This document shows positions 12,744 through 42,683 of a DNA stretch of 64,000 nt, in pieces. Where the stretch lies: contig NZ_OY782755.1 in NCBI RefSeq assembly GCF_963678165.1, positions 3,353,996-3,417,995 of the forward strand, in the 5' to 3' direction. Numbering within the stretch: the first letter of the stretch is position 1; every line of letters starts with the position of its first letter. This DNA comes from an uncultured Acetobacteroides sp. Lineage in GTDB: Bacteria > Bacteroidota > Bacteroidia > Bacteroidales > ZOR0009. The position numbers and the translations under genes are program-made. The notes under the pieces are model-generated. The model had not been told where the DNA came from. It did no database searches and was given only the letters and a program-made list of their open reading frames with translations.

Positions 12744-12953
12744 TATTGGCAAAGCCTAATCGGCAGACCTCCAAGGCGGCCTGTTACACCTGTTGGGGTG
12801 GTCGCTACCACCTATGAGGGTGGTCGGTTGGGCCTCGGAGGTGGTACGGAATACCTATGTAGGTGGTCGGGAACACCTGTAGGGGTGGTTGCTCGGACAT
12901 TGGAGATGTTGCGATGCCTCTCGGAGGCGTTACCGCTTGCCAATTACGGCAGT
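12744..12953. repeat. Array 1: about ten 21-bp units, each with a small inverted repeat
   Basis: The stretch divides into consecutive 21-base units, for example starting at 12786, 12807, 12828, 12849, 12870, 12891 and 12912, with weaker units on both sides. The units share an ACCT...AGGTGGT look, but arms vary: ACCACC/GGTGGT (12807-12824), ACCTA/TAGGT (12853-12864), GCCTC/GAGGC (12916-12928), TGCC/GGCA near 12938-12951. Loops are 2-7 bases. An open frame crosses it on the plus strand, but the heptapeptides are not conserved, so selection looks to act on DNA or RNA. The remaining bases to 13139 hold nothing recognisable. Confidence 0.75.
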
Positions 12954-13139
12954 TCATGTGTAGTGTGCGTCATTTTTTTGAAGGGGAAAGGAAAAAAGCG
13001 CCAGCAATACGTTGTAGTAAACCTAAAAAAGGTCAGTCCAGTAAGAAAATAGGAGACTGCTAAAACCAACATGAATCGAGGCACAGCGAGGTCCTCCACC
13101 GTTCGGCGATGGGCTTTTTATTTACGCACAGAGTTTTTG

Positions 13140-13147
13140 TATCTTTG
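13140..13147 (+). promoter_or_regulatory. Candidate -7 box for rlmB
   Basis: TATCTTTG, an exact TAnnTTTG match and identical to the ssrA box, lies 17 bases before the rlmB ATG. The -33 region is only a T-rich stretch. Confidence 0.55.
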
Positions 13148-13164
13148 CGCCAAATAAAAACAAT

Positions 13165-13929
13165 ATGAGCGCAAGCAACCAAAATTCGATATTTGGAATT
13201 CGCCCTGTGATAGAGGCCATCAACGCCGGCAAGCCGCTGGACAAGGTTATGATTAAGAACGGGCTGGAGGGCGAGCTGATTCAGGAGCTGAAGGACCTGC
13301 TCCGTAGGAAGAAGATCTTCGCCCAGTACGTTCCAGCCGAGAAGCTGAACAGCATCACCAGCCAGAACCATCAGGGCGTAATTGCCTTTGCCGCTCAAAT
13401 TGAGTACTACGAGCTCGAGGATGTGGTTACCGCCGCCCTCGAGGACGAGAAGAAAACCCCACTATTCCTTGTTCTCGATGGCGTTACCGACGTCCGCAAC
13501 TTCGGCGCCATTGCCCGTTCGGCCGAATGTGCTGGGGTTAACGCCATCATCATTCCGGCCAAAGGCTCGGCGCAAATCAACTCCGACGCCATCAAGTCGT
13601 CAGCAGGGGCGCTTCACTTCATTCCCATCGTTAAAGTTCCCAGCCTGCGCTCCGCCATCTTCTACCTCAGGGATAGCGGCATTAAGATTGTGGCCTCGTC
13701 GGAAAAGGCCAAGGACATGATGTACAAGGTGGACATGACACCACCAACGGCCATCATCATGGGGTCGGAGGATAAGGGCATCTCTCCCGACAACCTCAAG
13801 TTTGTTGACGAGATGGTGAAGGTTCCGCTCAGCGGCCAAATCGACTCGCTAAACGTAGGCGTTGCTGCCGCCTTGGTGATGTTCGAAGCCGTACGCCAGC
13901 GCATCTTCGATGCCATGTACGAAGACTAG
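13165..13929 (+). CDS. rlmB: 23S rRNA 2'-O-methyltransferase, RlmB/SpoU family
   Basis: A SPOUT-class methyltransferase expected to methylate the ribose of G2251 in 23S rRNA or a related site. The 254 residues have an N-terminal substrate-binding domain (IFGIRPVIEAINAGKPLDKV) and a C-terminal knotted SpoU domain with the three signatures LDGVTDVRNFGAIARSAECA, IMGSEDKGI and VPLSGQIDSLNVGVAAALVM. The gene is G+C-richer than its left neighbours. Members of this family also modify tRNA, so the exact target is inferred. Confidence 0.92.
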   Translation: MSASNQNSIFGIRPVIEAINAGKPLDKVMIKNGLEGELIQELKDLLRRKKIFAQYVPAEKLNSITSQNHQGVIAFAAQIEYYELEDVVTAALEDEKKTPLFLVLDGVTDVRNFGAIARSAECAGVNAIIIPAKGSAQINSDAIKSSAGALHFIPIVKVPSLRSAIFYLRDSGIKIVASSEKAKDMMYKVDMTPPTAIIMGSEDKGISPDNLKFVDEMVKVPLSGQIDSLNVGVAAALVMFEAVRQRIFDAMYED

Positions 13930-13965
13930 GCAGAAACCATTTTACGGGTAGAACACCATAAATCT

Positions 13966-13998
13966 GAAAAGCCCCGGGGAGTCAACCTCGAGGCTTTT
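13966..13998 (+). terminator. Terminator of rlmB
   Basis: AAAAGCC...GGCTTTT stem with further imperfect pairing inside, ending in TTTT, 37 bases after the rlmB stop. Confidence 0.75.
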
Positions 13999-14210
13999 AC
14001 ATTTTGGCCGCATGCCCAACCATGGCAGAAATACCCGGCCCCCTCCCCCACTTAGCGGCTTCCCAACAGCACCAGCGAGGGCAAGTCACCTTCTGGATTA
14101 ACAAAATGTTTATTTCGCCAACCACTAATTTACAGCCAGTTACAGCCATTACAGCAAAACCATTAGCTGAATATTTAACAAGTTATTAACCGTTTTGTGG
14201 CGGATTTTAA

Positions 14211-14861
14211 ATGCCAAGCCGATGCGGAATGGATATTTTGCAGCCGTATTTGAACAACAGCAGTAGAAACCTTCAAAATATCCAGACATTGAGAACTCCA
14301 TTGCTTGCAGATAACGAATTGGTAGAGCGCGTTGCCAAGGGCAGCGATGCTTCGTTTGCAATCCTGCATAACCGATACCGAAAGAAAGTTCTAGGTTACG
14401 TTTGCCTGTTCATCCGGAGGCAGGATGTTGCCGAAGACATCGCGCAAGACGTCTTCATAAAGGCCTACCGCTCGCTTACCGAAGGGGCGTACAAAGATGC
14501 AGGCAAGTTCGTTCCCTGGCTGATGCGCATTGCCCGCAACATGGTTATCGACTACTACCGCAAGGACCTCCCAATTTCCATTGATGAGAATAGCGCCATC
14601 GAGAATAAGCTGCAGAACATGTCAGCCGATGAGTCGCCCGAAAGGACAATTATCCGAAAGCAGCAAAATAACAGCCTCAGATTGCTTGTCGATGAGCTTC
14701 CCAAAGAGCAAAAAGAGGTGGTACTCCTAAGGTACTACATAGGAATGAGCTTCAAGGAAATTGCCGATTTTACCGACGTCAGCGTCAATACAGCACTGGG
14801 CCGAATGAGATACGCCTTAATAAATTTAAAGAAGAGAGCGAATGTCTTAGAGAGATTCTAA
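14211..14861 (+). CDS. RNA polymerase sigma factor, ECF/sigma-70 family
   Basis: An alternative sigma factor with region 2 (FAILHNRYRKKVLGYVCLFI, then DIAQDVFIKAYRSL) and region 4 (LPKEQKEVVLLRYYIGMSFK, a helix-turn-helix ending TALGRMRYAL). No region 3 is present. The 216-residue reading starts at the first ATG; a second in-frame ATG at 14229 (MDILQPYL) is equally plausible. No anti-sigma gene is adjacent, unlike the FecI/FecR pair at 21.5-23.1 kb. The regulon is unknown. The stretch from the rlmB terminator to 14211 is about 210 bases with nothing recognisable. Confidence 0.92.
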   Translation: MPSRCGMDILQPYLNNSSRNLQNIQTLRTPLLADNELVERVAKGSDASFAILHNRYRKKVLGYVCLFIRRQDVAEDIAQDVFIKAYRSLTEGAYKDAGKFVPWLMRIARNMVIDYYRKDLPISIDENSAIENKLQNMSADESPERTIIRKQQNNSLRLLVDELPKEQKEVVLLRYYIGMSFKEIADFTDVSVNTALGRMRYALINLKKRANVLERF

Positions 14862-14890
14862 CCAGCATTTGTGTTTTTAGCAGTTTGTTT

Positions 14891-14926
14891 GTAAAAAATA
14901 AGGGGCGCATGCCCCTTATTTTTTAC
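14891..14926. terminator. Bidirectional terminator
   Basis: A perfect inverted repeat with 16-base arms (GTAAAAAATAAGGGGC) and a 4-base loop GCAT. A- and T-runs at both ends serve both the sigma-factor gene on the left and the convergent gene on the right. Confidence 0.92.
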
Positions 14927-14938
14927 ATCAACCATGCC

Positions 14939-15451
14939 CTAGTAGAGCAGAGCAACCTCCTGCTTTATCTTTTGCTTGGCGAGTGCCGTAGGCGAAGTTT
15001 CGATATTCGCATAAGCCTCGATAATGAGCTTCGACAGCTCAATAGCCCTCATATCGGGATGAAGTTTGCTGCTACACGAGTTGACCAAGCCAACAATATT
15101 ATTCTTTGCATTAACAACATAAACCCACGACTCTGGGCTAACGTACAGTTGCTGCGATATGTTGTGCTCAAATTCAGTGCGAATGGTGCTTAACAACCTA
15201 GCCTGAAGGCTTGCAACCGTATCCTCGCCCTTGTTCACCCTAACAACCAAAGAATCGGGACTTATCCTCTCCAAGAAAACGACACACCGCTCGTAAGCCT
15301 GCAGCCTAAGGGGTAGCGTAATCTTATTGCGCACGAGCTGCTGCTCTATCTGCTGGAACGACTTTTGGTGCTTCAATGTAAGCGCAATAGCAACAATAGC
15401 AACTGCTGCAACGCAAATAATTGAAACTGCGAACAATATTACTTCTGTCAT
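14939..15451 (-). CDS. Conserved Bacteroidota membrane-anchored protein of unknown function
   Basis: A 170-residue protein with one N-terminal transmembrane helix (about residues 3-25, VILFAVSIICVAAVAIVAIA) and a cytoplasmic, mostly helical remainder. The segment QQIEQQLVRNKITLPLRLQA followed by YERCVVFLERISP and ISQQLYVSPESWVYVVNAKN is a pattern I have met in Bacteroidota hypothetical proteins (possibly the DUF7935 family), usually annotated without function. It is a single gene with a shared terminator downstream. No enzymatic motif is visible. Confidence 0.75.
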   Translation of the reverse strand: MTEVILFAVSIICVAAVAIVAIALTLKHQKSFQQIEQQLVRNKITLPLRLQAYERCVVFLERISPDSLVVRVNKGEDTVASLQARLLSTIRTEFEHNISQQLYVSPESWVYVVNAKNNIVGLVNSCSSKLHPDMRAIELSKLIIEAYANIETSPTALAKQKIKQEVALLY

Positions 15452-15566
15452 AGCCTGAAAAATTTACCAAATTTACCTAAAAGATACGATATTGATGCCT
15501 TAAATATTTAGGAAGCTAGCCGACTTTAGGCTTAAATGGTTTATTTTGCATAAAAAATAATAGACA

Positions 15567-16640
15567 ATGGCTTCTGCAAAACAAAAGAAACCTGCCAAGA
15601 CGCCCTTAAAGAAAATCGCTATTACAGTAGCAATTGCGGCATTTTCGATTGCCCTGTTTTTCGGCATAAGGCTCTACACACGGGTACTTATGCCCAATGT
15701 TGATCTGGGCGGTAAAAAATCGGCACACATACTAATTCCAACAGGCAGCGACTACAATGCCGTTGCTGCCATCTTTAGGCAGTCGGGCTACATAAAGAAC
15801 TTCAACACGTTCGAAAGCTATGCCGAAAAAAAAGGATATGCTCAAAAAGTAAAGCCAGGTAGATATAAGTTGGTTGCAGGCATGAGCAACCGTCGGTTGC
15901 TTAATATGCTAATCTCAGGCAACCAAGATCCTGCACAGATCTACATCAACAATATTAGAACAAAGGAGAAGCTTGCATCAATACTAGGAAAACAGTTAGA
16001 GCCCGATTCTTTGGCTATAGTAACCATGCTCAATAGCGATTCTGTTGCCAAATCTATAGGAATGACACCAGAAACCATCATCAGCCTCTTCATTCCAAAT
16101 ACCTACGAGCTCTACTGGAACGTAACTCCCAACGATATCCTTAAGCGAATGAAGAAGGAGTACGACAAGTTTTGGGGCGAAAAGAATAGACAGCACAAGG
16201 CCGATTCGATGGGTCTTAGCCGCGAACAGGTAATCACCGTTGCCTCAATTGTCGATGAGGAGACCAACTACGTTCCAGAGATGAACACCATTGCCGGTGT
16301 TTACCTCAATCGCTTAAAGAAGGAAATGCTGCTCCAAGCCGATCCTACAGTTAAGTTTGCCATTGGCGATCCAACCATTCGCCGAATCTTAAACAAGCAT
16401 TTATCGTTTGATTCTCCCTACAATACTTATAAGTACAAGGGATTGCCCCCAGGCCCTATAGCATTACCATCAATCGAGGCTATCGATGCAGTTCTCAATA
16501 GCGCAAAAACACCTTATATATACTTCTGCGCAAAGGCTGATTTCTCCGGAGCACATGCATTTGCCGTTACTAAAGAGGAGCACGAAAAGAATGCTCAGGT
16601 ATACCAAGCCGCACTTAACAAGCGAAACATAAAGAAATAA
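15567..16640 (+). CDS. mltG: Endolytic peptidoglycan transglycosylase MltG
   Basis: An inner-membrane lytic transglycosylase of the YceG family that cleaves nascent glycan strands. The 357 residues have one N-terminal transmembrane helix (about 15-35, IAITVAIAAFSIALFFGIRL), a LysM-like segment, and the YceG catalytic region with ITVASIVDEETN (catalytic Glu), NRLKKEMLLQADPTVKFAIG and YNTYKYKGLPPGPIALPS. Length is normal. Downstream it shares a bidirectional terminator with convergent murB. Confidence 0.95.
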   Translation: MASAKQKKPAKTPLKKIAITVAIAAFSIALFFGIRLYTRVLMPNVDLGGKKSAHILIPTGSDYNAVAAIFRQSGYIKNFNTFESYAEKKGYAQKVKPGRYKLVAGMSNRRLLNMLISGNQDPAQIYINNIRTKEKLASILGKQLEPDSLAIVTMLNSDSVAKSIGMTPETIISLFIPNTYELYWNVTPNDILKRMKKEYDKFWGEKNRQHKADSMGLSREQVITVASIVDEETNYVPEMNTIAGVYLNRLKKEMLLQADPTVKFAIGDPTIRRILNKHLSFDSPYNTYKYKGLPPGPIALPSIEAIDAVLNSAKTPYIYFCAKADFSGAHAFAVTKEEHEKNAQVYQAALNKRNIKK

Positions 16641-16642
16641 AG

Positions 16643-16676
16643 AAAAAGAGAGGCGCTTACAAGTGCCTCTCTTTTT
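16643..16676. terminator. Bidirectional terminator between mltG and murB
   Basis: AAAAAGAGAGGC pairs with GCCTCTCTTTTT across a 10-base loop. It lies just after the mltG stop and 23 bases beyond the convergent murB stop. Confidence 0.9.
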
Positions 16677-16698
16677 GCTTATCTTTTTCTCAATCACC

Positions 16699-17703
16699 TT
16701 AAAGGATATTCACCTCCTTTTCCAGAACAATCCCAAACTTATCGGATACCCCTGCTATTATTTCATCAGCCAAGGCAATCACCTCTTTACCGGTTGCATT
16801 GCCTAAGTTAATCAGCACAAGTGCTTGCTGGCCATGAACCCCAACATGCCCTTTCTTTATACCTTTATAGCCACAGGTTTCGATAAGCCAAGCCGCAGGA
16901 ACTTTTATTTTGCCATCTGCCGCTGGATAGTTGGGAACATTCGAATATTGAGCCTTGACGGCATCAAATTCATCCTTCGAAATAGTCGGATTCTTAAAAA
17001 AGCTACCGCAGTTCCCTATAACTTTAGGATCAGGGAGTTTTCTTTCGCGAATAGAAATAACCGCATCGCGCACAGTTTGTACTGTTCTTTCGGAATAATT
17101 CTTTAATTCTTCTTCTATATTGCCGTAGTGAGTCTTTAGGACAGGGCTTTTACTTAGCAAAAACGTTACATGGGTAATCGCCACCTTCCCCCTCAACTCG
17201 TGCTTGAATATGCTATCGCGGTAGCCAAATTGGCAGTAGCCATTATCAAAGCAAAAACGTTCGGCGCTGTCAAGATAAAAACCTTCAACAGCAACTATGG
17301 TGTCTTTTACCTCTACACCATAAGCACCAATATTCTGCACCGGACAAGCCCCTACATGACCAGGTATTAGCGAAAGATTTTCTAACCCTCCCAATCCTTT
17401 TCCTACGGTAAGCTTAACCAAGTCGTCCCATTCCATGCCAGCCCCAACTCGTAGAGTTGCGCTATCACAATCCTCGCTTAAAACCTCAACACTTTTTCCT
17501 GTTGGTTGAAGCACTACTCCTTCAAAATCTGAAGTAAATATGATATTACTACCTCCTCCAAGTACAAAAATAGGTTGCGTCTTATTTGATTTCAGGAAGC
17601 CAACCACCTCATCGTCATTGGCAGGCTGAACAAAGTTTTTTGCATTTGCATCAATACCAAAGGTGGTAATCTCCTTTAAAGAGAAGTTTTCTAGTACGTT
17701 CAT
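16699..17703 (-). CDS. murB: UDP-N-acetylenolpyruvoylglucosamine reductase
   Basis: FAD- and NADPH-dependent reductase that makes UDP-MurNAc for peptidoglycan synthesis. From the ATG at 17701-17703 it has 334 residues: FAD-binding segments PIFVLGGGSNIIFT and LIPGHVGACPVQNIGAYGVE, the YRDS motif (GYRDSIF), and GNCGSFFKNP with the catalytic Ser. A longer reading begins with a GTG at 17722-17724, but that codon overlaps the TATCTTTG promoter box, so the ATG is preferred. This is type I MurB in length and motif order. Confidence 0.95.
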   Translation of the reverse strand: MNVLENFSLKEITTFGIDANAKNFVQPANDDEVVGFLKSNKTQPIFVLGGGSNIIFTSDFEGVVLQPTGKSVEVLSEDCDSATLRVGAGMEWDDLVKLTVGKGLGGLENLSLIPGHVGACPVQNIGAYGVEVKDTIVAVEGFYLDSAERFCFDNGYCQFGYRDSIFKHELRGKVAITHVTFLLSKSPVLKTHYGNIEEELKNYSERTVQTVRDAVISIRERKLPDPKVIGNCGSFFKNPTISKDEFDAVKAQYSNVPNYPAADGKIKVPAAWLIETCGYKGIKKGHVGVHGQQALVLINLGNATGKEVIALADEIIAGVSDKFGIVLEKEVNIL

Positions 17704-17723
17704 TGAGCTGCTGTTTAGTCGCA

Positions 17724-17731
17724 CAAAGATA
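17724..17731 (-). promoter_or_regulatory. Candidate -7 box for murB
   Basis: TATCTTTG on the minus strand, an exact consensus match 20 bases before the murB ATG. It overlaps the alternative upstream GTG and therefore decides the start choice. Confidence 0.55.
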
Positions 17732-17777
17732 TAAATCGTACAAAGGATATACGATTTACAGATTAATTTATCTTTTG

Positions 17778-18257
17778 TTAAAGAGGCTGATCAGCTTCCT
17801 TTTCTTCGGTTTCGACTCCTACTAGTTCAAACAACCCCTCCTTGCTTGGAAGAGCGATCATCTGATATACAATATATATTGCCCCTATAATAAGAAGATG
17901 AGTGTTGTTCGAGAAGAAGTATAGCACAAGATTTACAAAAAAAACCGAGCTAACTATAATGAGTTTTGTAAAGAACGCAACCCTATATATTCTAAGGCAC
18001 AACTCGGTTGGATCATTACCGCTAATTCTTTTAATTCTTTTATTAAATAGCCAGTTTGTAAGAGGAATTGTCATAAGAGCAATTACAATTGCAGTAAAGT
18101 ATAGTTTTGCGGCTGTCTCAGGCGAAATATACGAGGTTGTGTTTTTTTGGATAAAGGATGTAATAAGGAGTAGTACAATCATCGCACTGATGCTACTCCA
18201 ATTTATCCGAGCAAGCATCGATAATGTTTTGTCTATTTGTTCGTTTTGGAAAGTCAT
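17778..18257 (-). CDS. Four-helix integral membrane protein, unknown function
   Basis: A 159-residue protein with four hydrophobic segments: about 20-38 (WSSISAMIVLLLITSFIQ), 48-68 (LYFTAIVIALMTIPLTNWLF), 92-112 (VAFFTKLIIVSSVFFVNLVL) and 118-137. The tail is acidic and charged. No motif was recognised. It is transcribed in the same direction as murB, 74 bases upstream, and may share its transcript, although murB has its own promoter-like box. Confidence 0.7.
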   Translation of the reverse strand: MTFQNEQIDKTLSMLARINWSSISAMIVLLLITSFIQKNTTSYISPETAAKLYFTAIVIALMTIPLTNWLFNKRIKRISGNDPTELCLRIYRVAFFTKLIIVSSVFFVNLVLYFFSNNTHLLIIGAIYIVYQMIALPSKEGLFELVGVETEEKEADQPL

Positions 18258-18581
18258 ATTTCTTTACTCATTAAGTTTAGGACTGTAGGTGTAGGTGTCG
18301 TTCATGCATCATTTTAAGGCATTAACCAGTAGCTTGCGAATCTCTAGTTTTTCCAATGTGAGTTGGTGACTTCTGGGATGACAATGAAAAACCTCCCTTT
18401 TCAGAATATACGTTTGAGAGATGGGCGCTTATTCAATTCCACTCTATAAAGTTCCGCGCAATGACCTCATGCCATCCTTGTTCAATTCCACTTAACACTT
18501 TACTCTAAATCCAAAACTAGATTAGCATCATTAAAAGCCCCCAAATTTATTAATTCAAACGAACAATTAACATTTTTAGTA
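18258..18581. other. Intergenic region with a repeated 12-mer
   Basis: No gene is visible. The 12-mer TTCAATTCCACT occurs twice, at 18432-18443 and 18481-18492. Nothing else stands out. Confidence 0.5.
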
Positions 18582-18613
18582 AAAAAAAAGACCATCGCAA
18601 GGATGGTCTTTTT
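18582..18613 (-). terminator. Terminator of the NYN/cold-shock gene
   Basis: AAGACCATC pairs with GATGGTCTT (9 base pairs, 5-base loop), with a run of eight T on the minus strand. It lies 16 bases beyond the gene's stop. Confidence 0.88.
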
Positions 18614-18628
18614 ATGAAGAGAGGAGGT

Positions 18629-19564: not shown

Positions 19565-19920
19565 AATTGTACTGTTATTAAAATTTTACTATAAAATTTA
19601 TGTATACAGGGCGTGTAGGTACACTTCACTGTTGCATATTAGGGCAGTTTTATATCTGAACTAAAACCAAAGTAAAATTACTACCATTTTTTTATAAACA
19701 CATCCTGTTTTGAATAAAAGTTCCTATTTACACTAAAAAAAGCACAATTTAACCTTGCATTCAAATTGCAAACCCTTGAAATTCACGTGACATTAACTCC
19801 ATATTTTCCCTTTAAGTACAAAATATTTTGGAGATATAGCCTAACAGCAAATATGAGAGGTTGACTTTAAACTGATTTATGGCAAGTAAACACCATTAGA
19901 ATAGCACCTATCAACTACGC
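19565..19920. other. Intergenic region, A+T-rich
   Basis: 356 bases with no credible gene. It must hold the promoter of the NYN gene, but I could not fix a -7 box with confidence. The region is the A+T-rich boundary before the G+C-richer FecI/FecR cluster. Confidence 0.5.
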
Positions 19921-22519: not shown

Positions 22520-22540
22520 GGCAGTAAGAATTAATTGTGG

Positions 22541-23182: not shown

Positions 23183-24448
23183 CTAGTTGTTATTCTTCTG
23201 CATGTACTTTGCAATCTTTCGGATGGCATTCTCTATCGACTGCTCGGGCTCGATGATGTTGCTCTCGCCCCAGAAGTTCTGATCCTGCAAGTCCTGGATG
23301 CGGTCGTTGAGCACCATGTTGGTCTTAAAGGTTTCGTCGAATGGGATCTTGGCCACGTTGGCCTTGGAGATGTTGGTGATGGCCATCTCCGACATCACGG
23401 TGTAGTAGCTGTTAAACCAGCGCTTCTTCCAGTCGGCCTTAAACTTCATCTCGTTGCGGACGTAGTTTACGTAGTACTTGCCATCGGGGCCGGTCTTGTA
23501 CGATACCAGGTAGCTCGTGGCGGTAGGCACCATCTTCAGCCCAATTGGCTTCTTCTTGATGAAGAACGATTCGGCCTTTGCCTTGTCGCTGATGTCCATG
23601 CTGAACTCGGCCATGGTGAGCGCTAGCGTCTCCTGGTTGATGTAGAACTTGCCGAAGAATAGCGGATAGGGCTGCTCGTAGGCAGGGCTGAAGCTGATGA
23701 TGTAGTTGAGCTTGTTGTTGATGTTAACCACGCCGCTCATCTCGTACTTGTAGTCGCGGAGCGATTCAACCGAAAACAGGTAGTCGGGATTCTTCACCAC
23801 GTCGAGCAGCAGCGCTACCGATGGCCCCCCCTGCAGCTTAACCAGCAGCGTGTCGGCCTTCTTGATGTTGGTACCCTTGCGGCCCTTCTCTACCCTTACG
23901 CGGTCGTTATCGTAGCTGGTGTACGACGTCTTGTAGATGTCAACTACAGCCTCGGAAACCGACAGGTAGTCGCGGCGCTGCTTGATGGTCTCGCGGTAGA
24001 AGCCCTCCATCATTGCGGGAGCAATGGCGTAGTTCTTCGAGATATCGGAAATGGCCATCCGAACAAGCATGTCGGGCGATTCGGGACGGACTATAATTTC
24101 CTGAAGGGAAAGAACGTGGGGCTCGATGAAGTAGACGCCGGGCTTTCCGTTGCTCTCCTCGATCTTCAGCGTGCTGTTCTTATAGCCCACGTGCGAGATC
24201 TCGAGCTCGGAGGCGTTGAGCGATTTGGGCACCTTAATCAGGAATTCGCCCTCAGAGTTGGTTACCGTACCGATGTTGCCGTTAGGGATGCTGATGTTGG
24301 CAAAAGCCACGGCGTTCCGGGTGTTGGCATCCTTCACAATGCCGTACACCGTGGTGTAGCTGCCGTTCTGGCCGTAGGCAAATCCGAAGCTGGCTACCAG
24401 CACGACTATCATGCCGATTTGTAGCATTCTCTTAACAAGATTTCTCAT
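23183..24448 (-). CDS. CarboxypepD_reg-like domain exported protein
   Basis: A 421-residue exported protein, paralogous to the C-terminal two thirds of the protein at 19921-21507. A signal peptide (about 8-26, MLQIGMIVVLVASFGFAYG) precedes a CarboxypepD_reg-like domain (TVYGIVKDANTRNAVAFANI) ending LSLQEIIVRPESP, followed by the shared C-terminal domain (FFGKFYINQETLALTMAEFS, then NFWGESNIIEPEQS near the end). No STN domain and no TonB barrel. It precedes the sigma gene by 84 bases on the same strand. The surface or periplasmic role is unknown. Confidence 0.82.
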   Translation of the reverse strand: MRNLVKRMLQIGMIVVLVASFGFAYGQNGSYTTVYGIVKDANTRNAVAFANISIPNGNIGTVTNSEGEFLIKVPKSLNASELEISHVGYKNSTLKIEESNGKPGVYFIEPHVLSLQEIIVRPESPDMLVRMAISDISKNYAIAPAMMEGFYRETIKQRRDYLSVSEAVVDIYKTSYTSYDNDRVRVEKGRKGTNIKKADTLLVKLQGGPSVALLLDVVKNPDYLFSVESLRDYKYEMSGVVNINNKLNYIISFSPAYEQPYPLFFGKFYINQETLALTMAEFSMDISDKAKAESFFIKKKPIGLKMVPTATSYLVSYKTGPDGKYYVNYVRNEMKFKADWKKRWFNSYYTVMSEMAITNISKANVAKIPFDETFKTNMVLNDRIQDLQDQNFWGESNIIEPEQSIENAIRKIAKYMQKNNN

Positions 24449-24604: not shown

Positions 24605-24898
24605 GGCCCGAGGTCGGGCAAGTACTGCTACCTGCCGAAAAGTGCTGGCCCGACCCCGGGCAAGTACCATCCTCTTCCGCGAAGGCTCGGCCCGACCTCG
24701 GGCAAGTACTACACCCACCTGATCACACTTGGCCCGCCCACGGGCAAGCATCTCTCACCACCGATCACACCTTGCCCGACGTCGGGCCACACTTGCCCAG
24801 CCCCAAACATTGCTTGCCCGACGTCGGGCCAAATCCATCCGCCACCAAGTACAGCTGCCCTGGGGCATGGCCAAGGCAATCCGCCAGCTTTAAGCCAG
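24605..24898. repeat. Array 2: 42-bp tandem repeat with GCCCGA..TCGGGC palindromes
   Basis: The pentamer GCCCG begins at 24606, 24648, 24690, 24732, 24774 and 24816, exactly 42 bases apart six times; a seventh degenerate copy begins near 24857. Each copy has a 14-base inverted repeat, perfect in copies 5 and 6 (GCCCGACGTCGGGC), with invariant arms GCCCG/CGGGC and changing centres. The intervening 28 bases vary. In copy 5 a half-strength GCCCAG lies at +21 (24795), which suggests a 21-base sub-period. The array sits between two oppositely transcribed genes: the exported protein (start 24448) and the DUF6261-like gene (start 25018). Confidence 0.85.
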
Positions 24899-25017: not shown

Positions 25018-25752
25018 ATGATAAAGCCCCACGCCTTCCACGACATGCGCATCAACGAGAAGGGCTACTTTGGCGACAGGGTGCTCGACACAGTTGCGCC
25101 CTACGCCGACAAGGATGCCGACCTAGCCCTGCTGATCGAGGACGTACGCGCCAAAAACCAACTGCTGACCAAGGCGCTGATGAAGCTGAGCTACGCCAGC
25201 ATCACCAAGCAGATGAAAGCCGACGATAGCCTCCGCGACCACGGATTTGTTAACCTGCGCACCTACGCCCAGGTGTGCGCAGGCCGAAAAGACCCCACCT
25301 GGGCGAATGCGGGGCAGCTGCTGGTGAACGCCATCAAGAAAACCGGCTGGGACATGAACCGGAAGGGCAACAAGGAGGAGACGATGCTGGTGGACACCCT
25401 GCTGGCCGAGTTCGACAGCCAGCCCAAGCTGCGGGAGGCCATAGCCACCATCAACGCCCAGGAGTGGATCGACGAAATCCGCGAGGGGCACGCCAGCTAC
25501 GAGCAGCACAGCCTGCTCCGCGACAGCGTCAAGGAGTCGAAGAACAAGGTAAACGCCAGGCGGGCCGCCCAGGAGCTGTGCCAGGCCATCAACAAGCTGT
25601 TCCGCTACATCAACTTCTATGTCGAATTTAAGAAGAGCGAGCCCTACAAGACGCTCGCCGACTCGATAAACGCCACCATTGCCGAATGCCGGAAAACGCT
25701 CAAGCAGCGCGCTACCCGCGCCCGCTCGGCTAAGGCGCGCAAGAAGGAGTAG
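25018..25752 (+). CDS. DUF6261-like helical protein of unknown function
   Basis: A 244-residue soluble, alpha-helical and very charged protein ending in a basic tail (RATRARSAKARKKE). It resembles DUF6261, a Bacteroidota family without known function, in length and in the pattern of spaced helices (LIEDVRAKNQLLTKALMKLS; LRDHGFVNLRTYAQV; ELCQAINKLFRYINFYVEFK). The match is by general impression only. Codon use is markedly G+C-rich compared with carAB or nifJ, and the gene lies about 120 bases from array 2 with its own terminator. No enzymatic motif is visible. Confidence 0.65.
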   Translation: MIKPHAFHDMRINEKGYFGDRVLDTVAPYADKDADLALLIEDVRAKNQLLTKALMKLSYASITKQMKADDSLRDHGFVNLRTYAQVCAGRKDPTWANAGQLLVNAIKKTGWDMNRKGNKEETMLVDTLLAEFDSQPKLREAIATINAQEWIDEIREGHASYEQHSLLRDSVKESKNKVNARRAAQELCQAINKLFRYINFYVEFKKSEPYKTLADSINATIAECRKTLKQRATRARSAKARKKE

Positions 25753-33734: not shown

Positions 33735-33906
33735 ATAATTTATTTAGAACACTCGACAAGATACCATATAACTTGCATCATGCTTCCTCAACCATCTTTG
33801 ATTTAAGAATTTTTAATCAATACAATAATTCAATACTAAATGGTAAAAGCATCTGCTAATGAATAAAAGCAAATCTACTAGGGAATTGAATTTAACTTAA
33901 ATCAGG

Positions 33907-34470: not shown

Positions 34471-34531
34471 AGCCGTTTGTATTTGGCTTGAATTTAACGC
34501 AAATTCAGTCGATTAGCAACGGATGGATAAA

Positions 34532-35215: not shown

Positions 35216-35303
35216 GGTAAAATCCTTTGTTCGATGCAAAGTAAGGAGTTTTGCGACGCCATCCCAACAGTGAGCACTTTTAGTACAACTTGCCATAATT
35301 TGC

Positions 35304-35311
35304 TACATTTG
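35304..35311 (+). promoter_or_regulatory. Candidate -7 box for the sigma-54 activator gene
   Basis: TACATTTG matches TAnnTTTG, 17 bases before the ATG at 35329. The -33 element is unclear. Confidence 0.4.
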
Positions 35312-35328
35312 CCATACACACTTTAACG

Positions 35329-37245: not shown

Positions 37246-37273
37246 AAAGCAAAACCACCCCGCCCTACGGGCA

Positions 37274-37294
37274 CCCCTCCTTTAAAAGGAGGGG
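37274..37294. repeat. Intergenic REP-like hairpin
   Basis: A perfect inverted repeat of ten bases per arm with a 1-base loop (CCCCTCCTTT / AAAGGAGGGG). It lies just downstream of the sigma-54 activator gene and could also stop its transcription. No transposase is nearby. Confidence 0.7.
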
Positions 37295-37413
37295 AATAAG
37301 CCTCAGGCAATAATTGCTATTAACTTCAAGATTCTTGCTTTGGACGAAGCTAAAGAGTGAACATTTTATCGATACAACTGTATATTGACAGATTAAAGAA
37401 CTTAGGCAAAGAG

Positions 37414-38319
37414 ATGAACTATAGAAAAGAATTTAGGAAGGCTACTGCTGTACTGGCTGCAATTGTGCTGATTGGGGGATTTACCGCGTGCAGCAGCAAG
37501 TCAACCGAAAGCAATAGGAAGACAATTACCGTAAGCATTCCTCCCATTAAATATTTGGTTGATCGAATTTCGGGAAATGAGTTTGATGTAAACGTGATGG
37601 TGGCAACGGGAGCATGCCAGGAAACCTACGAGCCTACGCCATCGCAAATGAAGGATGTGGCAAAGTCGAAGCTATACCTTGGCATTAGCGAGCTGGAGTT
37701 TGAGCAGAAATGGCTTAACAACATTAAAGCAAACAACCCTGAGCTGAAGTACGCCAACCTATCGGAAGGTGTCAAAATGGTTGAAGGCTCATGCAGCCAT
37801 GAGGAGTGCGAGGAGCATGAACATCATCATGGAGGGATGGACCCTCACATCTGGCTATCGCCTGCCAACTACAAGGTAATGGCAACGGCAACGCTTAACG
37901 AGCTGGTTACACTGAATCCGAAGAATAAATCAAGCTACGAAAAGAACTTTAAAAGCCTTGTTGCATCAATAGACAGCATCGATGCCATAGCAAAAAGCAA
38001 ACTGGCTAACCTAAAGATTAAGAAGTTTATCATCTACCATCCGGCGCTAAGCTACTTTGCACGCGACTACGGACTGGAGCAGATATCCATCGAACAGGAT
38101 GGCAAGGAACCTGCCGCCGACTACATGAAGCGACTTGTATCGCAGGCAAAAGAGGTTGGCATCAAAACGATATTCGTGCAAAAGGAGTTCGACCTAAGCC
38201 TAATCAAAAGTTTTGCCGGAGAAGTTGGCGCTACTATCGAACCAATAAATACCTTTGCGTACGATTGGCTTGAAAGCACAAACCATATAATTAACGCACT
38301 TTATTCCGCCAACCAATGA
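37414..38319 (+). CDS. znuA: Zinc/manganese-type ABC transporter substrate-binding lipoprotein
   Basis: A cluster A-1 (ZnuA/TroA) metal-binding lipoprotein. From the ATG at 37414 (MNYRKEFRKATAVLAAI) it has 301 residues with a lipobox GFTACSS, then ITVSIPPIKYLVDRISGNEF, a Cys/His-rich loop (CSHEECEEHEHHHGGMDPH) and MDPHIWLSP. A further metal His lies in FIIYHPALSYFARDY. The His-rich loop favours zinc. The upstream start at 37357 would put 19 residues before the signal and is rejected. Its stop overlaps the next gene (ATGA), so it is co-translated with the ATPase. Confidence 0.9.
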   Translation: MNYRKEFRKATAVLAAIVLIGGFTACSSKSTESNRKTITVSIPPIKYLVDRISGNEFDVNVMVATGACQETYEPTPSQMKDVAKSKLYLGISELEFEQKWLNNIKANNPELKYANLSEGVKMVEGSCSHEECEEHEHHHGGMDPHIWLSPANYKVMATATLNELVTLNPKNKSSYEKNFKSLVASIDSIDAIAKSKLANLKIKKFIIYHPALSYFARDYGLEQISIEQDGKEPAADYMKRLVSQAKEVGIKTIFVQKEFDLSLIKSFAGEVGATIEPINTFAYDWLESTNHIINALYSANQ

Positions 38320-39074
38320 GTGAAAAGCTGGTTGAGCTAACCGATATTACCACCGGATACGACGGCGTTGCTGCCATCGAGCACGTTAACCTGACTATTA
38401 ACGAGCAGGACTACATCGGCATCATCGGTCCGAATGGAGGCGGAAAGACTACGCTGCTTAAGGTAATCTTGGGTATCCTCCCTCCATTTTCTGGCAAGAT
38501 AGCGCTACATGGATCGACCGATGGCAAGCGCGACTTCATCGGGTATCTTCCACAGGTAAATAACATCGATAAGAAATTTCCTATAACCGTTCAGGAGGTG
38601 GTGCTTTCGGGCATCATGTCTAGGAAGGGCATCTTTACCCAATACACCAAGGAGGATAAGGCGCTTGCACGCGAGCTGATGGAGAGAACTGGCATCGAGC
38701 ATCTCCGAAAAAAGGTAATTGGCGAGCTATCGGGCGGACAGATGCAGCGGGCGTTTCTTAGCCGTGCGCTGATATCGAAGCCGAAGCTGCTGATCCTCGA
38801 CGAGCCAAACACCTACGTGGATAACAAGTTTGAGGGGGAACTCTACGAGCTGCTCACGAAGCTAAACGAGCAGATGGCCATCGTAATCGTTACGCACGAC
38901 CTTGGGACGGTGAGCCAGTACGTAAAGTCGATTGCCTGTGTAAACAGAGGGCTACACCTCCACCCATCGAACATCATCAGCCAGGAGCAACTGGACAACT
39001 ATAACTGTCCGATACAGCTTATCACGCACGGGCATATTCCGCATACCGTTCTCGAAAATCATAATAAGAAGTAA
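38316..39074 (+). CDS. znuC: ABC transporter ATP-binding protein, zinc/manganese type
   Basis: The ATPase of the metal importer: Walker A GPNGGGKTTLLK, signature LSGGQMQRAFLSRALIS, Walker B KLLILDEPNTYVD and the switch His in VIVTHDLGTVSQYV. In Walker B the usual DEPT/G reads DEPN. The 252 residues are of normal length. It overlaps znuA by 4 bases and the permease gene by 1 base. The operon order SBP-ATPase-permease is standard. Confidence 0.93.
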   Translation: MSEKLVELTDITTGYDGVAAIEHVNLTINEQDYIGIIGPNGGGKTTLLKVILGILPPFSGKIALHGSTDGKRDFIGYLPQVNNIDKKFPITVQEVVLSGIMSRKGIFTQYTKEDKALARELMERTGIEHLRKKVIGELSGGQMQRAFLSRALISKPKLLILDEPNTYVDNKFEGELYELLTKLNEQMAIVIVTHDLGTVSQYVKSIACVNRGLHLHPSNIISQEQLDNYNCPIQLITHGHIPHTVLENHNKK

Positions 39075-39901
39075 TGGTAGAGTTTGTAAACGACATATTC
39101 GAGTACCAATTCCTGCAGAACGCCTTTATCGCCGGACTGCTGGTGAGCATCGCCTGCGGGATTGTTGGCACCTATATCGTAGCAAAGCGGCTGGTGTTCC
39201 TCAGCGGAGGTATCACCCACTCGTCGTTTGGGGGGATTGGGATTGCCTACTACCTAGGGTTGAACCCCATCTTCGGAGCGTTTGTATTCTCGGTGCTTTC
39301 GGCAATGGGGATTGAGTTCTTTGCAGATAAAACCAAGATGCGCGAGGATTCGGCCATTGGCATCCTCTGGGCATTGGGAACGGCCATCGGGGTAATATTT
39401 GTTTCGATGACGCCAGGCTACGCACCTAACCTGATGAGCTTCCTCTTCGGAGGTCTGCTAGGCGTTACCAAGGTTGACCTTGGGGTGATGCTGGCCCTCG
39501 ATGTGGTGCTGCTGCTTCTCTTTATTCTGGGACTTCGAACTATCCTATATATAGCCTTCGACAAGGAGTTTGCCATATCGCAAAATGCTTCGGTGAAGCT
39601 GGTAAACTACATGATGATGATCCTGATATCGGTTACCATCGTGATGTGCATTCGGGTGGTGGGGATTATCCTGCTGATTGCGCTCCTTACCATTCCTGTT
39701 GTTACGGCCAACATCTTCTATAAAGATTTTAAGCGCATAATGGTTGCCTCCATTGTGCTTGGATTTGTGGGGATGCTGGTGGGGCTGTACGTCAGCTTTG
39801 AGGTGAACTTGCCTTCGGGGGCGGCTATCATACTTGCACAGTCGGTGATTTGGCTGGCGTGTAAGGGGGTGGAGTTTTTGAAGAAGGTGAGAAGGGAGTA
39901 G
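39074..39901 (+). CDS. znuB: ABC transporter permease, ZnuB family
   Basis: A 275-residue membrane protein with about eight hydrophobic segments and the family pattern: FLQNAFIAGLLVSIACGIVG, the coupling region FLSGGITHSSFGGIGIAYY, and MCIRVVGIILLIALLTIPVV. It starts at the last base of the ATPase stop. Together with the two upstream genes it completes a metal importer. Confidence 0.93.
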   Translation: MVEFVNDIFEYQFLQNAFIAGLLVSIACGIVGTYIVAKRLVFLSGGITHSSFGGIGIAYYLGLNPIFGAFVFSVLSAMGIEFFADKTKMREDSAIGILWALGTAIGVIFVSMTPGYAPNLMSFLFGGLLGVTKVDLGVMLALDVVLLLLFILGLRTILYIAFDKEFAISQNASVKLVNYMMMILISVTIVMCIRVVGIILLIALLTIPVVTANIFYKDFKRIMVASIVLGFVGMLVGLYVSFEVNLPSGAAIILAQSVIWLACKGVEFLKKVRRE

Positions 39902-39945
39902 TGAATAGATAAAGCCCTGAAGGGGCGACATCTATAAATTCCCGT

Positions 39946-40034
39946 GTGATTTATCCCGCAGGAATAAAGGTTGGAGAGGATATTGGTTGTGACCATTACC
40001 CACCCCTACCTCCCGCCTAAGCGGGAGGATAACG
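39946..40034. repeat. Direct repeat copy A with terminal hairpin
   Basis: Begins around GATTTATCCCGCAGG and ends with the hairpin CCTCCCGC-CTAA-GCGGGAGG at 40009-40028. It is degenerate with copy B 472 bases downstream. The shape (long variable part plus a REP-like hairpin) suggests remnants of a mobile palindromic element. Confidence 0.65.
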
Positions 40035-40417
40035 TGCTGCAATTGGGCGTTTGTACTTTTGAATTAGACCTTAGCTTGACGGCAATGGGCTTGAAGCCTT
40101 CGCCTAACACAGAGGTATAGGGATAGGATATATTTACTTTCATTTCTTTTGTGTCCAAAAGAAACGAAACAAAGAAAAGCCTATCGTGCCTTAACTTGCA
40201 GACTTCGGCGTAGGGTGTTTTACCATGATAATGGTTTGCACGCGCATTGAGACTTTGAACTTTACGAAGTGCTGTGGATGCTTCGTCCGCTTCGAACAGA
40301 ACCCACGACGAAGATGGTATGGCCAAGGCCACGGTATTTACGGAATAAGGTGGTTTAACGAATTAATGTTTATATACCGTAGGTTGGTTTGTGAGTTATA
40401 TCAGGAGAGAAACAACT

Positions 40418-40506
40418 GGGATTTATCCCACGGAGATAAAGGTGGTAGGTTAATTGAAGTAACTATTACCCACCCCCTGCCCTCCCGCCAAAGCGGGAGG
40501 ATAAAG
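40418..40506. repeat. Direct repeat copy B with terminal hairpin
   Basis: Begins around GGGATTTATCCCACGG and ends with CCTCCCGC-CAAA-GCGGGAGG at 40481-40500. It shares the same order of motifs as copy A (TTATCCC, GATAAAGG, ATTACCCACCCC, hairpin, GGATAA). Confidence 0.65.
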
Positions 40507-40598
40507 TAGAAGCAAGAAAGGCAAACGATATTTATGAATTTTAGCGAAAAAAGAAAGTTCAAGTGAAAGATATTCTAAACACAAACCTTCGAACCTCT

Positions 40599-40629
40599 TC
40601 TAACATCTAAAGTCTAATATCTAACGTCT
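40599..40629. repeat. Heptamer repeat upstream of lpd, inverted
   Basis: Reads TCTAACATCTAAAGTCTAA and so on. On the minus strand it is the same AGAYRTT-type heptamer repeat found downstream of lpd. About four units. Confidence 0.7.
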
Positions 40630-40670
40630 CTTAGTAGAAGAAACACTTAACACTAAATAGAACTAACGAC

Positions 40671-42062
40671 ATGAATTTTGACCTGATAGTTATAGGTAGC
40701 GGTCCTGGAGGCTATGTGGCAGCCATCCGCGCGAGCCAGCTGGGCATGAAGGTGGCCGTTGTTGAACGTGCCGAACTTGGTGGCATCTGCCTAAACTGGG
40801 GATGTATCCCAACCAAGGCGCTGCTTAAGAGCGCATCGGTGTACGAGTACGCCCAACACGCAGCCGAGTACGGCGTGGTGGTTGAGGGTGCCATCAAACC
40901 CGACTTTGCGGCAATCGTAGCCCGCAGTCGTGGCGTGGCCGACAGCATGAGCAAGGGCATTCAGTTCCTTTTCAAAAAGAATAAGGTTGAGGTGATAGAG
41001 GGCTTCGGCAAGCTGGTTGCCCCACACCAGGTAGAGGTTACCGCAGCCGATGGCACCGTAACCAAGGTTGAGGCTAACCACATCATCCTGGCAACGGGCG
41101 CACGCAGCCGCGAGCTTGCGAACCTGCCCATCGATGGCGAGAAGATCATCGGATACCGTCAGGCGATGACGCTTGCCAAGCAGCCAGAGTCGATGGTGGT
41201 GGTAGGTTCGGGCGCCATTGGTAGCGAGTTCGCCTACTTCTACAACGCCATCGGAACAAAGGTGACGCTGGTGGAGTTCCTTCCTAACGTAGTTCCATTG
41301 GAGGATGAGGAGGTGTCGAAGCAGCTCGAGCGCTCGTTCAAAAAGGCGGGCATCAAGGTGATGACCAACAGCGAGGTGCTTTCGGTGGATACTACCGGCG
41401 AGCGGTGCTCGGTGATCATCAAAACAAAGAAGGGCGAAGAGACCGTTGAGGCCGACATCGTTCTATCGGCAGTGGGTATTGCCACCAACCTCGAAGGCTT
41501 GGGCCTTGAGGAGGTAGGCGTGGCCAACGAGCGCGGCAAGGTGGTGGTGGACGAGTTCTACCGCACCAACATCGAGGACGTGTACGCCATTGGCGATATC
41601 GTGGCCGGACCAGCCCTTGCCCACGTGGCATCGGCCGAGGGTATCTGCTGCGTGGAGAAGATTGCCGGCTTGGACGTGCATGCGATTGACTATAGCATCA
41701 TCCCCGGATGTACCTACACCACGCCCGAGGTGGCATCGGTGGGACTATCCGAAAAGAAGGCCATCGAGGCTGGATACGAGGTGAAGGTGGGCAAGTTCCC
41801 ATTTACGGCTTCGGGCAAGGCGACAGCTGCCGGCGCTAGGGATGGCTTCGTGAAGGTGATCTTCGATGCCAAGGATGGCAAGCTGCTGGGCGCCCACCTG
41901 ATCGGTGCCAACGTTACCGAGATGGTGGCCGAGATGGTGCTGGCCCAAAACCTGGGGGCTACCGGTCACCAGATTATCAAGGCGATCCACCCCCACCCTA
42001 CCATGAGCGAGGCTATCATGGAGGCGGCTGCGGCAGCCTACGGTGAGGTGATTCACATCTAG
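40671..42062 (+). CDS. lpdA: Dihydrolipoyl dehydrogenase
   Basis: FAD-dependent E3 enzyme that reoxidises dihydrolipoyl groups of 2-oxo acid dehydrogenases or the glycine cleavage system. The 463 residues show the FAD fold LIVIGSGPGGYVAAIRASQ, the redox disulfide GGICLNWGCIPTKALL, the NAD-binding MVVVGSGAIGSEFAYFY, VYAIGDIVAGPALAHVAS, and the C-terminal His-Glu HPHPTMSEAIMEA. No E1 or E2 gene is adjacent. The gene is G+C-rich and flanked by heptamer repeats in opposite orientation. Confidence 0.96.
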   Translation: MNFDLIVIGSGPGGYVAAIRASQLGMKVAVVERAELGGICLNWGCIPTKALLKSASVYEYAQHAAEYGVVVEGAIKPDFAAIVARSRGVADSMSKGIQFLFKKNKVEVIEGFGKLVAPHQVEVTAADGTVTKVEANHIILATGARSRELANLPIDGEKIIGYRQAMTLAKQPESMVVVGSGAIGSEFAYFYNAIGTKVTLVEFLPNVVPLEDEEVSKQLERSFKKAGIKVMTNSEVLSVDTTGERCSVIIKTKKGEETVEADIVLSAVGIATNLEGLGLEEVGVANERGKVVVDEFYRTNIEDVYAIGDIVAGPALAHVASAEGICCVEKIAGLDVHAIDYSIIPGCTYTTPEVASVGLSEKKAIEAGYEVKVGKFPFTASGKATAAGARDGFVKVIFDAKDGKLLGAHLIGANVTEMVAEMVLAQNLGATGHQIIKAIHPHPTMSEAIMEAAAAAYGEVIHI

Positions 42063-42095
42063 ACGTTAGATGTTAGATATTAGATTTTAGACGCC
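42061..42095. repeat. Heptamer repeat downstream of lpd
   Basis: Consecutive 7-base units AGACGTT, AGATGTT, AGATATT, AGATTTT. The same sort of run recurs at about 42181-42213 and 42302-42323, and inverted at 40599-40629. Confidence 0.75.
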
Positions 42096-42096
42096 T

Positions 42097-42325
42097 TTTT
42101 ACCACAAAGGACGCTAAGGATAACACGAAGGGCGCTGAGATTTTTTCTCGGGGCCCTTCCTTTTTAGATGCAAGTGTTGAGATATTAGATGTTAGACGTT
42201 AGATATTAGATTCTCTTTTACCACAAAGGGCACGGAGGATGGCACAAAGGGCACGGAGATTTTTTCTCGGGGCCCTTCGTTTTTAGATGCAAGTGTTGAG
42301 AGATTAGATATTAGACGTTAGATGT
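42097..42325. repeat. About 120-bp tandem duplication after lpd
   Basis: Two units (from 42097 and 42217), each ordered TTTTACCACAAAGG, a hairpin ending GGGGCCCTTC, TTTTTAGATGCAAGTGTTGA and a heptamer run. The two copies differ at scattered positions, for example GACGCTAAGG versus GGCACGGAGG. Confidence 0.75.
42127..42165 (+). terminator. Probable lpd terminator
   Basis: GAAGGGC...GCCCTTC with further pairing inside and a T-rich loop, then CTTTTTAG. The second tandem unit repeats the same hairpin. Confidence 0.65.
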
Positions 42326-42389
42326 TTTTTTAGGCGCGAAGGGGCAGAAAGTGGATAAGGGTAATAATGGATACGAAGAGAAGAAGCTC

Positions 42390-42683
42390 GGCGCAGGAGC
42401 AAATGTGTAAAGCGCAGGAGCGATTGTGTAAGCCGCAGGTCTGATTGTGTAAGTCGCAGGTGCCGATGTGCAAGTCGCAGGTGCCGATGTGTAAGTCGCA
42501 GGTGCCAATGTGTAAACCACAGGTGTGAATGTGTAAGCCGCAGGTGTGATTGTGTAAACCACAGGTCCGATTGTGCAAGTCGCAGGTGCGATTGTGTAAG
42601 CCGCAGGTGCCGATGTGTAAGTCGCAGGTGTGATTGTGTAAAGCAACGGAGCCAATGTGTAAAGCGACGGAGCCAATGTGCTT
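42390..42683. repeat. Array 3: fourteen 21-bp tandem units
   Basis: The motif TGTGTAA (or TGTGCAA) starts at 42404, 42425, 42446, 42467, 42488, 42509, 42530, 42551, 42572, 42593, 42614, 42635 and 42656, with TGTGCTT at 42677; every step is exactly 21 bases with no insertion or deletion. Before each comes CRCAGGT, often as a small palindrome: CACAGGTGTG at 42518-42527 and CGCAGGTGCG at 42581-42590, a two-sided change that keeps complementarity. An open frame on the minus strand encodes degenerate heptapeptides of the YTxAPAx type but starts with TTG and resembles no known protein. It lies 97 bases from the stop of the next gene. Confidence 0.88.

What the first reader, a model, noticed from the sequence alone, without database searches (positions are those of the whole stretch)
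12744..42683. Three unrelated intergenic arrays share a strict 21-bp module with an inverted repeat per unit
Arrays at 12744-12953, 24605-24898 and 42390-42683 have no sequence in common, yet the first and third step by 21 bases and the second by 42, with a half-unit visible at +21. 21 bases is two turns of B-DNA and 7 codons. Each unit has a small palindrome, and the arms change between units while often staying complementary, so selection may act on structure, on phased protein binding, or on a replication or recombination process that creates such arrays. I know of no named element of this kind.
Basis: partly seen in the sequence, partly recalled or inferred. Interest (0 to 1): 0.82.

Follow-up and report, generated by a model that had tools for sequence, protein, structure and literature searches.

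The report
Two-turn DNA repeat arrays beside genes
This bacterium's genome carries many short DNA repeat arrays of unrelated sequence that mostly share a repeat length of two (or four) turns of the double helix, and many of them sit on a fixed side of particular families of uncharacterised genes, which points to an unrecognised kind of gene-linked control element or bacterial satellite DNA.

Summary
In 864 kb of this 4.3-Mb genome, 48 of 72 tandem arrays have a period that is an exact multiple of 21 bp, and 12 more lie within about 1 bp per 42. The six strongest lags in intergenic DNA are 42, 84, 126, 21, 63 and 105. The signal recurs in both congeners and in two other families, not in pooled controls.

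Details are weaker. Array 1 steps by about 21.6, not 21, and the half-unit in array 2 is not above shuffles. Arm covariation is absent.

New: arrays are tied to gene families with fixed polarity. An array lies upstream of DUF6261 and small HTH_26 genes in 60 of 67 loci, downstream in 2, and downstream of a third family in 6 of 7. DUF6261 genes carry arrays in all 11 loci fetched from five other families. Unit sequences change between species while register and position often persist.

Best reading, unproven: a phased protein-binding lattice beside promoters. Main rival: satellites that merely inherit their period.

The parts
12744..12953 (.). Array 1: about 21.6-bp step, palindromic units; between tmRNA and the SpoU-family methyltransferase gene, upstream of the latter
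   Evidence: relatives at 2.38 and 2.91 Mb
24605..24898 (.). Array 2: 42-bp step, palindromic units (GCCCGA..TCGGGC type); upstream of the DUF6261 gene, in the gap between two divergent genes
42390..42683 (.). Array 3: exact 21-bp step; downstream of the P0001-family gene, between convergent genes; counterparts at the same place in both congeners
25018..25752 (+). DUF6261 (PF19775) gene, one of 38 matches in this genome; array 2 lies upstream
42780..43526 (-). P0001-family gene (no Pfam family at E 0.001), one of 5 matches in this genome; array 3 lies downstream
12044..12447 (+). tmRNA, left neighbour of array 1
   Evidence: Rfam RF00023; ARAGORN missed it
13165..13929 (+). SpoU-family rRNA methyltransferase gene, right neighbour of array 1
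23183..24448 (-). Gene with a carboxypeptidase-regulatory-like domain, left neighbour of array 2
40671..42062 (+). Pyridine nucleotide-disulphide oxidoreductase gene, left neighbour of array 3

Best explanation
Shown: the three arrays belong to a genome-wide class of fast-evolving intergenic tandem arrays whose unit is about two helical turns (21 bp) or four (40-43 bp). They tend to keep register and position while the unit sequence changes, and many are tied with fixed polarity to paralogous gene families: upstream of DUF6261 and small HTH_26 genes, downstream of the P0001 family. Inferred: what is selected is geometry, every unit on the same face of the helix, so that an array acts as a lattice for DNA-binding proteins next to the promoter (or beyond the terminator) of its gene and sets or insulates its expression. 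The unit sequence can then drift together with its binder, be homogenised within the array and be copied between loci. The small HTH_26 proteins are candidate binders for the 21-bp arrays; that is a guess.
For: Period: 48 of 72 arrays exactly 21n; intergenic lags 42, 84, 126, 21, 63, 105 highest, nothing at 10, 11, 31, 32, 52, 53. Register: 68 indel columns per 1533 mismatches in 60 arrays against 235 per 547 in other non-coding DNA; flanks too decayed for TRF still match their array in exact phase (33.5% against 25-27%). Polarity: array upstream in 60 of 67 DUF6261 and HTH loci, downstream in 2; downstream in 6 of 7 P0001-family loci; 13 of 13 members of the three families in the sampled 864 kb lie within 373 bp of an array. 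The DUF6261 link holds in 11 of 11 loci in five other families, where arrays are otherwise rare in the sampled DNA of four of the five. HTH loci have a promoter-like element between array and start codon more often than elsewhere upstream (10 and 7 of 28 in the two bins nearest the start). Step differs with the gene family: exact 21n in 15 of 19 HTH-linked and 11 of 30 DUF6261-linked arrays.
Against: No binding, expression or fitness data. Orthologous genes with 77-88% identical proteins can have arrays of little or only partial similarity (L324/L322, L330/L325, L341/L336), and one 94%-identical DUF6261 pair has an array in one species only (L296/L290), which speaks against a fixed operator. 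A conserved contiguous core per unit is rare (3 of 42). About a fifth of array-bearing gaps lie between convergent genes (10 of 50), upstream of nothing. 41- and 22-bp steps are less well phased than the absent 31, 32, 52 or 53 would be. Intrinsic curvature is no greater than in column-permuted arrays (p 0.62). The indel comparison uses different aligners, and TRF favours indel-poor arrays.
Confidence: 0.42

Rival explanations
1. Bacterial satellite DNA without function: one or a few ancestral two-turn arrays spread through the genome by copying of blocks, diverged by concerted evolution, and simply inherited the 21-bp period; they persist in poorly constrained intergenic DNA.
For: Blocks of unlike units recur in order at other loci (up to 91% identity); units drift along and between arrays; arrays are absent from some orthologous sites; many arrays neighbour ordinary genes.
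Against: Does not predict a fixed side relative to three gene families or arrays at DUF6261 genes in genomes that have few others. Free drift to unrelated sequence should have changed unit length more often.
Confidence: 0.3
2. The array is transcribed and its repeats act as RNA, for example as a repeat antitoxin upstream of a toxin gene, as in type III toxin-antitoxin loci; applies at most to DUF6261 loci.
For: Array upstream of the gene, 41-43-bp palindromic units, private sequence per copy, many paralogues.
Against: No match of DUF6261 or P0001 to Pfam toxin families or PADLOC; a terminator between array and gene was not tested systematically; does not fit DNA-binding HTH_26 genes, nor the P0001 family with its array downstream.
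Confidence: 0.12
3. A mutational ruler: some replication or repair process of this lineage makes tandem duplications in steps of two helical turns.
For: Unrelated sequences share the period; non-array intergenic DNA has slightly more exact repeat pairs at 21n than expected (15 against 9.4).
Against: No 21n excess in coding DNA (9 of 79 multiple-of-3 pairs, 11.5 expected); fixed polarity relative to genes.
Confidence: 0.1
4. The arrays code for seven-residue repeats (coiled coils).
For: 21 bp is seven codons; one array (L011 11893-12177) lies inside a 1.7-kb reading frame; open frames slightly exceed expectation (89 against 75 in 42 arrays).
Against: Periods 41, 62, 82, 83, 85, 104, 106 and 40, 43 break the frame; no consistent purifying selection: where only one frame is open, omega is 1.8-10 in L031, L040, L041 and L047.
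Confidence: 0.03

Closest known systems
Prokaryotic satellites (Subirana and Messeguer 2019, PMC6749651; parts 1 and 2 of 5 read)
   Same: Intergenic tandem arrays, unique or in dispersed families; their Table 1 lists up to 23 per Mb for bacteria and up to 89 per Mb for an archaeon
   Different: One shared period across unrelated arrays and a fixed side relative to gene families; neither is described in the parts read. Density here depends on definition: 29 per Mb with four or more TRF copies, 61 if 21 bp is taken as the unit
Iterons of plasmid origins (recalled, from no call)
   Same: Direct repeats of about two helical turns just upstream of a gene for a DNA-binding protein, as in the HTH_26 loci
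   Different: Chromosomal, in many copies, each with its own sequence; no replication gene; also at genes without a recognisable DNA-binding domain, and downstream of others
Type III toxin-antitoxin loci (PMC5086642, passages seen)
   Same: Short tandem repeats upstream of a gene
   Different: No toxin family matched; HTH_26 genes and downstream arrays do not fit; terminator between array and gene not tested
REP/BIME elements with RAYT transposases (recalled, from no call)
   Same: Palindromic extragenic repeats in clusters
   Different: No shared motif here between arrays; array sits at paralogous genes with fixed polarity
H-NS nucleoprotein filaments on arranged sites (PMC5418058, abstract seen)
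   Same: Model for how the spatial arrangement of sites directs higher-order protein-DNA structure
   Different: The binding protein is unknown here; no binding data

Membership tests
Prokaryotic satellite DNA | At least four tandem copies of a 10-200-bp unit (definition in PMC6749651) | tested here: met
   Met by a part: 25 arrays in 864 kb by TRF copy number, 53 if 21 bp is the unit
Prokaryotic satellite DNA | Related arrays at several places in the genome | tested here: met
   Relatives of each window array elsewhere
Iteron-type array | Direct repeats of two helical turns upstream of a DNA-binding protein gene | tested here: inconclusive
   Met in 19 of 28 HTH_26 loci by TRF; not so for DUF6261 (no such domain found) and the P0001 family (array downstream)
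Iteron-type array | Binding by the encoded protein and control of replication | not testable with these tools
   No binding data; some orthologous proteins keep 77-88% identity while the array differs
Type III toxin-antitoxin | Toxin gene of the ToxN, CptN or TenpN kind | tested here: not met
   No toxin family among the Pfam matches of DUF6261, P0001 and HTH_26 proteins; no PADLOC match
[quoted passage not shown]
   Array upstream; terminators not scanned; promoter-like element lies between array and gene in many HTH loci
REP/BIME | Shared palindromic motif and a linked RAYT transposase | tested here: inconclusive
   The arrays differ in sequence by family; RAYT genes were not searched for

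The most novel reading that the evidence does not exclude
A previously unrecognised chromosomal system in several Bacteroidota families: paralogous accessory genes (DUF6261, small HTH_26 regulators, the P0001 family) each carry, on a fixed side, a private tandem array whose sequence is free to change but whose geometry, two or four helical turns per unit, is selected. Such geometry-coded rather than sequence-coded cis elements form a nucleoprotein lattice that individualises the expression of each gene copy.
Probability: 0.35. Interest if true: 0.9.

Novelty: new variant of a known kind. Interest (0 to 1): 0.78.

Why it matters
Cis elements are normally recognised by sequence. Here sequence varies while repeat geometry, position and side relative to a gene family persist. 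If that is selected, it is a rule of gene control that motif searches cannot see; if it is not, it is a bacterial counterpart of eukaryotic satellite evolution, dense enough to study in a small genome. Either way it gives DUF6261, a family of unknown function, a concrete handle.

Tried and rejected
Coding heptads: rejected as the general case. Intrinsic curvature as the selected trait: arrays are more curved than other intergenic DNA (0.128 against 0.088, p 0.015) but not more than arrays with permuted columns (0.115, p 0.62); wedge values recalled. A contiguous conserved core in every unit: 3 of 42 arrays at p < 0.05. A preference of arrays in general for 3' or 5' ends: none; polarity shows only per gene family. 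Structures of P0001 and the DUF6261 protein from single sequences gave mean pLDDT 41.5 and 48.9, too poor, so no fold search was run. Weak, non-significant profile hits were set aside (P0001 to the MakB cytotoxin model, E 0.033, 13.6 bits against a cut-off of 240; others). DUF6261 on plasmids: no match. Genus: I guessed Acetobacteroides or Williamwhitmania from memory and searched papers for them; nothing confirms it. Literature on the arrays: and, for DUF6261, (one paper, a Streptococcus study, seen as a listing).

Limits: gene calls are my own codon-usage calls, not an annotation. Loci for the polarity counts are those that the searches cut out, best-scoring first: 30 of 89 DUF6261 matches in the genus, 11 of 16 elsewhere, 30 of 36 HTH matches. 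Dropped before counting: L332 and L350 (weak matches with stops); L320 (no gene model); one search keeps the 67 loci with enough upstream sequence. The array L011 11893-12177 was left out of the array lists. More DNA was taken from G031 and G041 because a first sample held arrays, so their densities are not random samples. For G041 and G035 the HTH prediction could not be tested.
Full report
What was checked. Array 3 steps by exactly 21 bp (lag identity 0.79), array 2 by 42 (0.63), array 1 by about 21.6 rather than 21 (best lags 65, 22, 86, 87, 43). The highest value in 1000 shuffles of each was 0.39-0.41, so all three are real; the half-unit of array 2 is not (lag 21 0.352; shuffles 0.341 on average, 0.392 at most).

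Genome survey. The window lies in a 4,298,710-bp contig. I took 40 evenly spaced 20-kb stretches plus the window (864 kb). Of 72 tandem arrays of 60 bp or more, 48 have periods that are exact multiples of 21 (42: 20, 84: 9, 63: 8, 21: 5, 126: 5, 105: 1); 12 have 41, 62, 82, 83, 85, 104 or 106; 12 have other periods, one of them what looks by eye like a 96-bp tRNA array. Independently of any repeat finder, base matches in 304 intergenic segments (161 kb) are highest at lags 42, 84, 126, 21, 63 and 105 (z 16.3 to 6.7), followed by 6, 7 and 41 (5.1, 3.9, 3.6); lags 10, 11, 31, 32, 52 and 53 show nothing.

Where it occurs. Congener G002: 12 arrays in 240 kb, periods 42 (5), 126 (3), 21 (2), 41, 84; congener G001: 3 in 160 kb, periods 42, 84, 21. 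G031, another family of the order: 14 arrays in 300 kb, periods 42 (3), 41 (2), 84, 43, 40 and also 46, 28, 24 (2), 23, 22, with lags 126, 42, 84 and 21 at z 4.0 to 3.2 below a peak at lag 8. G041: 7 arrays in 60 kb, periods 42 (2), 21, 63, 43, 32, 196. In 73 named Bacteroidota loci (1.17 Mb) there were 35 arrays, none of period 42 and two of 21, and in 27 short loci of other genomes of the order none. The pooled other genomes of the order and the named loci show no 42, 84 or 126 peaks; lag 21 stands at z 3.3-3.4 there beside other multiples of 3, as residual coding DNA would give. Single 42-, 105- and 21-bp arrays do occur in G017, G010 and G043.

Register and turnover. In 60 arrays TRF counts 1533 mismatches and 68 indel columns (0.044), against 547 substitutions, 92 gaps and 235 gap columns (0.43) in non-coding, non-array DNA aligned between species. 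The methods differ, so I read this as roughly 4- to 10-fold fewer indels. Flanks too diverged for TRF still match their array best in exact phase (33.5%; 27% one base off; 25-26.5% elsewhere). Array 3 has counterparts at the same place in both congeners, past what looks by eye like the terminator of the same gene; the units ACACAATCGCACCTGCGGCTT, GCACAATAGCTACTGCATTAA and GCACAATGGCTTGGAGGCTGA share phase and only part of their letters. Another array has kept one half of its 42-bp unit and exchanged the other, and one (L019 975-1315) is absent from a congener. Stretches of 102-122 bp of array 1, spanning unlike units, recur elsewhere at up to 91% identity, so arrays are copied as blocks.

What it is not. 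Coding: frames break in the 41-, 83- and 85-bp arrays and omega in open frames is not consistently low. A general duplication bias: no 21n excess in coding DNA (small sample). Covarying hairpins: no. Selected curvature: no more than in permuted units.

Link to genes. Of the clusters of three or more among 670 proteins of the sampled stretches, the one most tied to arrays is a small Cro/C1-type HTH_26 protein (6 of 6 within 700 bp; base rate 17%; p 2.6e-5, uncorrected for the clusters compared; Pfam). With profiles, all 13 members found of three families in the 864 kb lie within 373 bp of an array: DUF6261 5, HTH_26 6, P0001 2. DUF6261 has 38, 33 and 18 matches in G000, G002 and G001 and none in 14 control genomes; among 60 genomes of the order including the window's own it occurs in 8. 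The HTH_26 family has 17, 15 and 4 matches in the genus and at E 1e-8 occurs beyond it only in G035 and G041 of the 60. P0001 matches occur in 7 of 60: the three congeners, G004, G014, G031 and G041. DUF6261 alone does not explain arrays: G041 has arrays and no DUF6261 match.

Polarity. Corrected for strand, a TRF array ends within 600 bp upstream in 30 of 40 DUF6261 and 19 of 28 HTH loci and lies downstream in one of each, with a median of 149 and 151 bp to the start codon. A lag test that also sees decayed arrays gives 60 of 67 upstream and 2 of 67 downstream. P0001-family genes have it downstream in 6 of 7 distinct loci, 103-293 bp away; one of these also has a 22-bp repeat upstream, and the seventh has none in the DNA held. 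Outside the genus, all 11 fetched DUF6261 loci, in five genomes of five families, have an adjacent array of 41-43 bp or a multiple, ten by TRF and one by lag 42 (0.70). In 120 kb sampled from four of these genomes (G004 and G043 40 kb, G039 and G057 20 kb) there was one 21-bp array and none of 40-43. In G000 24% of random 3.46-kb windows hold an array of this kind, against 20 of the 30 DUF6261 loci of the genus.

Mechanism. For HTH loci a -7-like element (pattern recalled for Bacteroidales) is most frequent 0-80 bp before the start codon (10 and 7 of 28 in the two nearest 40-bp bins, 3 or fewer in each other bin), so these arrays seem to sit upstream of the core promoter; for DUF6261 no clear peak is seen. 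DUF6261-linked arrays are palindromic (6.03 against 4.53 in shuffles, p 2.6e-6) and exact 21n in 11 of 30; HTH-linked ones are not palindromic (p 0.25) and exact 21n in 15 of 19. Other G000 arrays are palindromic to a lesser degree (5.15 against 4.33, p 0.0016, 45 arrays). I therefore favour protein lattices in which geometry is what is conserved. The chief difficulty is that orthologous proteins can have arrays of little or partial similarity, or none, while others keep theirs at 74-90% identity; neither a fixed operator nor function itself is proven. Neutral satellites that inherit their period are the main alternative.

Comparison with print. The survey of prokaryotic satellites (PMC6749651, two of five parts read) describes unique and dispersed arrays; no shared period or gene link is mentioned in those parts. 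The searches listed no account of such arrays in the open-access library; apart from PMC6749651, PMC5086642 (passages) and PMC5418058 (abstract) I saw listings only. The genus is not named; the best named relative of the SpoU-family methyltransferase is a Bacteroidales metagenome-assembled genome at 57% identity.

Noticed in passing
window 12044-12447 (+): A tmRNA gene that ARAGORN missed and Rfam found.
   Followed up: no
window 42066-42323: A 119-bp duplication beside array 3 with runs of a TTAGATGTTAGACG-like 7/14-mer; 25-50-bp pieces of this stretch recur at dozens of places in G000 and G002.
   Followed up: no
window 12447-13165: The neighbour upstream of the methyltransferase gene differs in all three congeners, so array 1 lies at a rearrangement point; in G002 that gene adjoins the P0001-family gene that in G000 adjoins array 3.
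   Followed up: partly
L022 10938-11208: Three identical 96-bp copies of what looks by eye like a tRNA gene in tandem.
   Followed up: no
L011 11893-12177: A 63-bp array inside a 1.7-kb reading frame that reads as a seven-residue repeat; probably a true coding repeat.
   Followed up: partly
L279 6332-7023 (G041): A 196-bp tandem array of 3.6 copies in a genome that also has 21- and 42-bp arrays.
   Followed up: no
named Bacteroidota loci, for example L109, L121, L122: 7-, 14- and other short-unit arrays are the commonest kind in these relatives.
   Followed up: no
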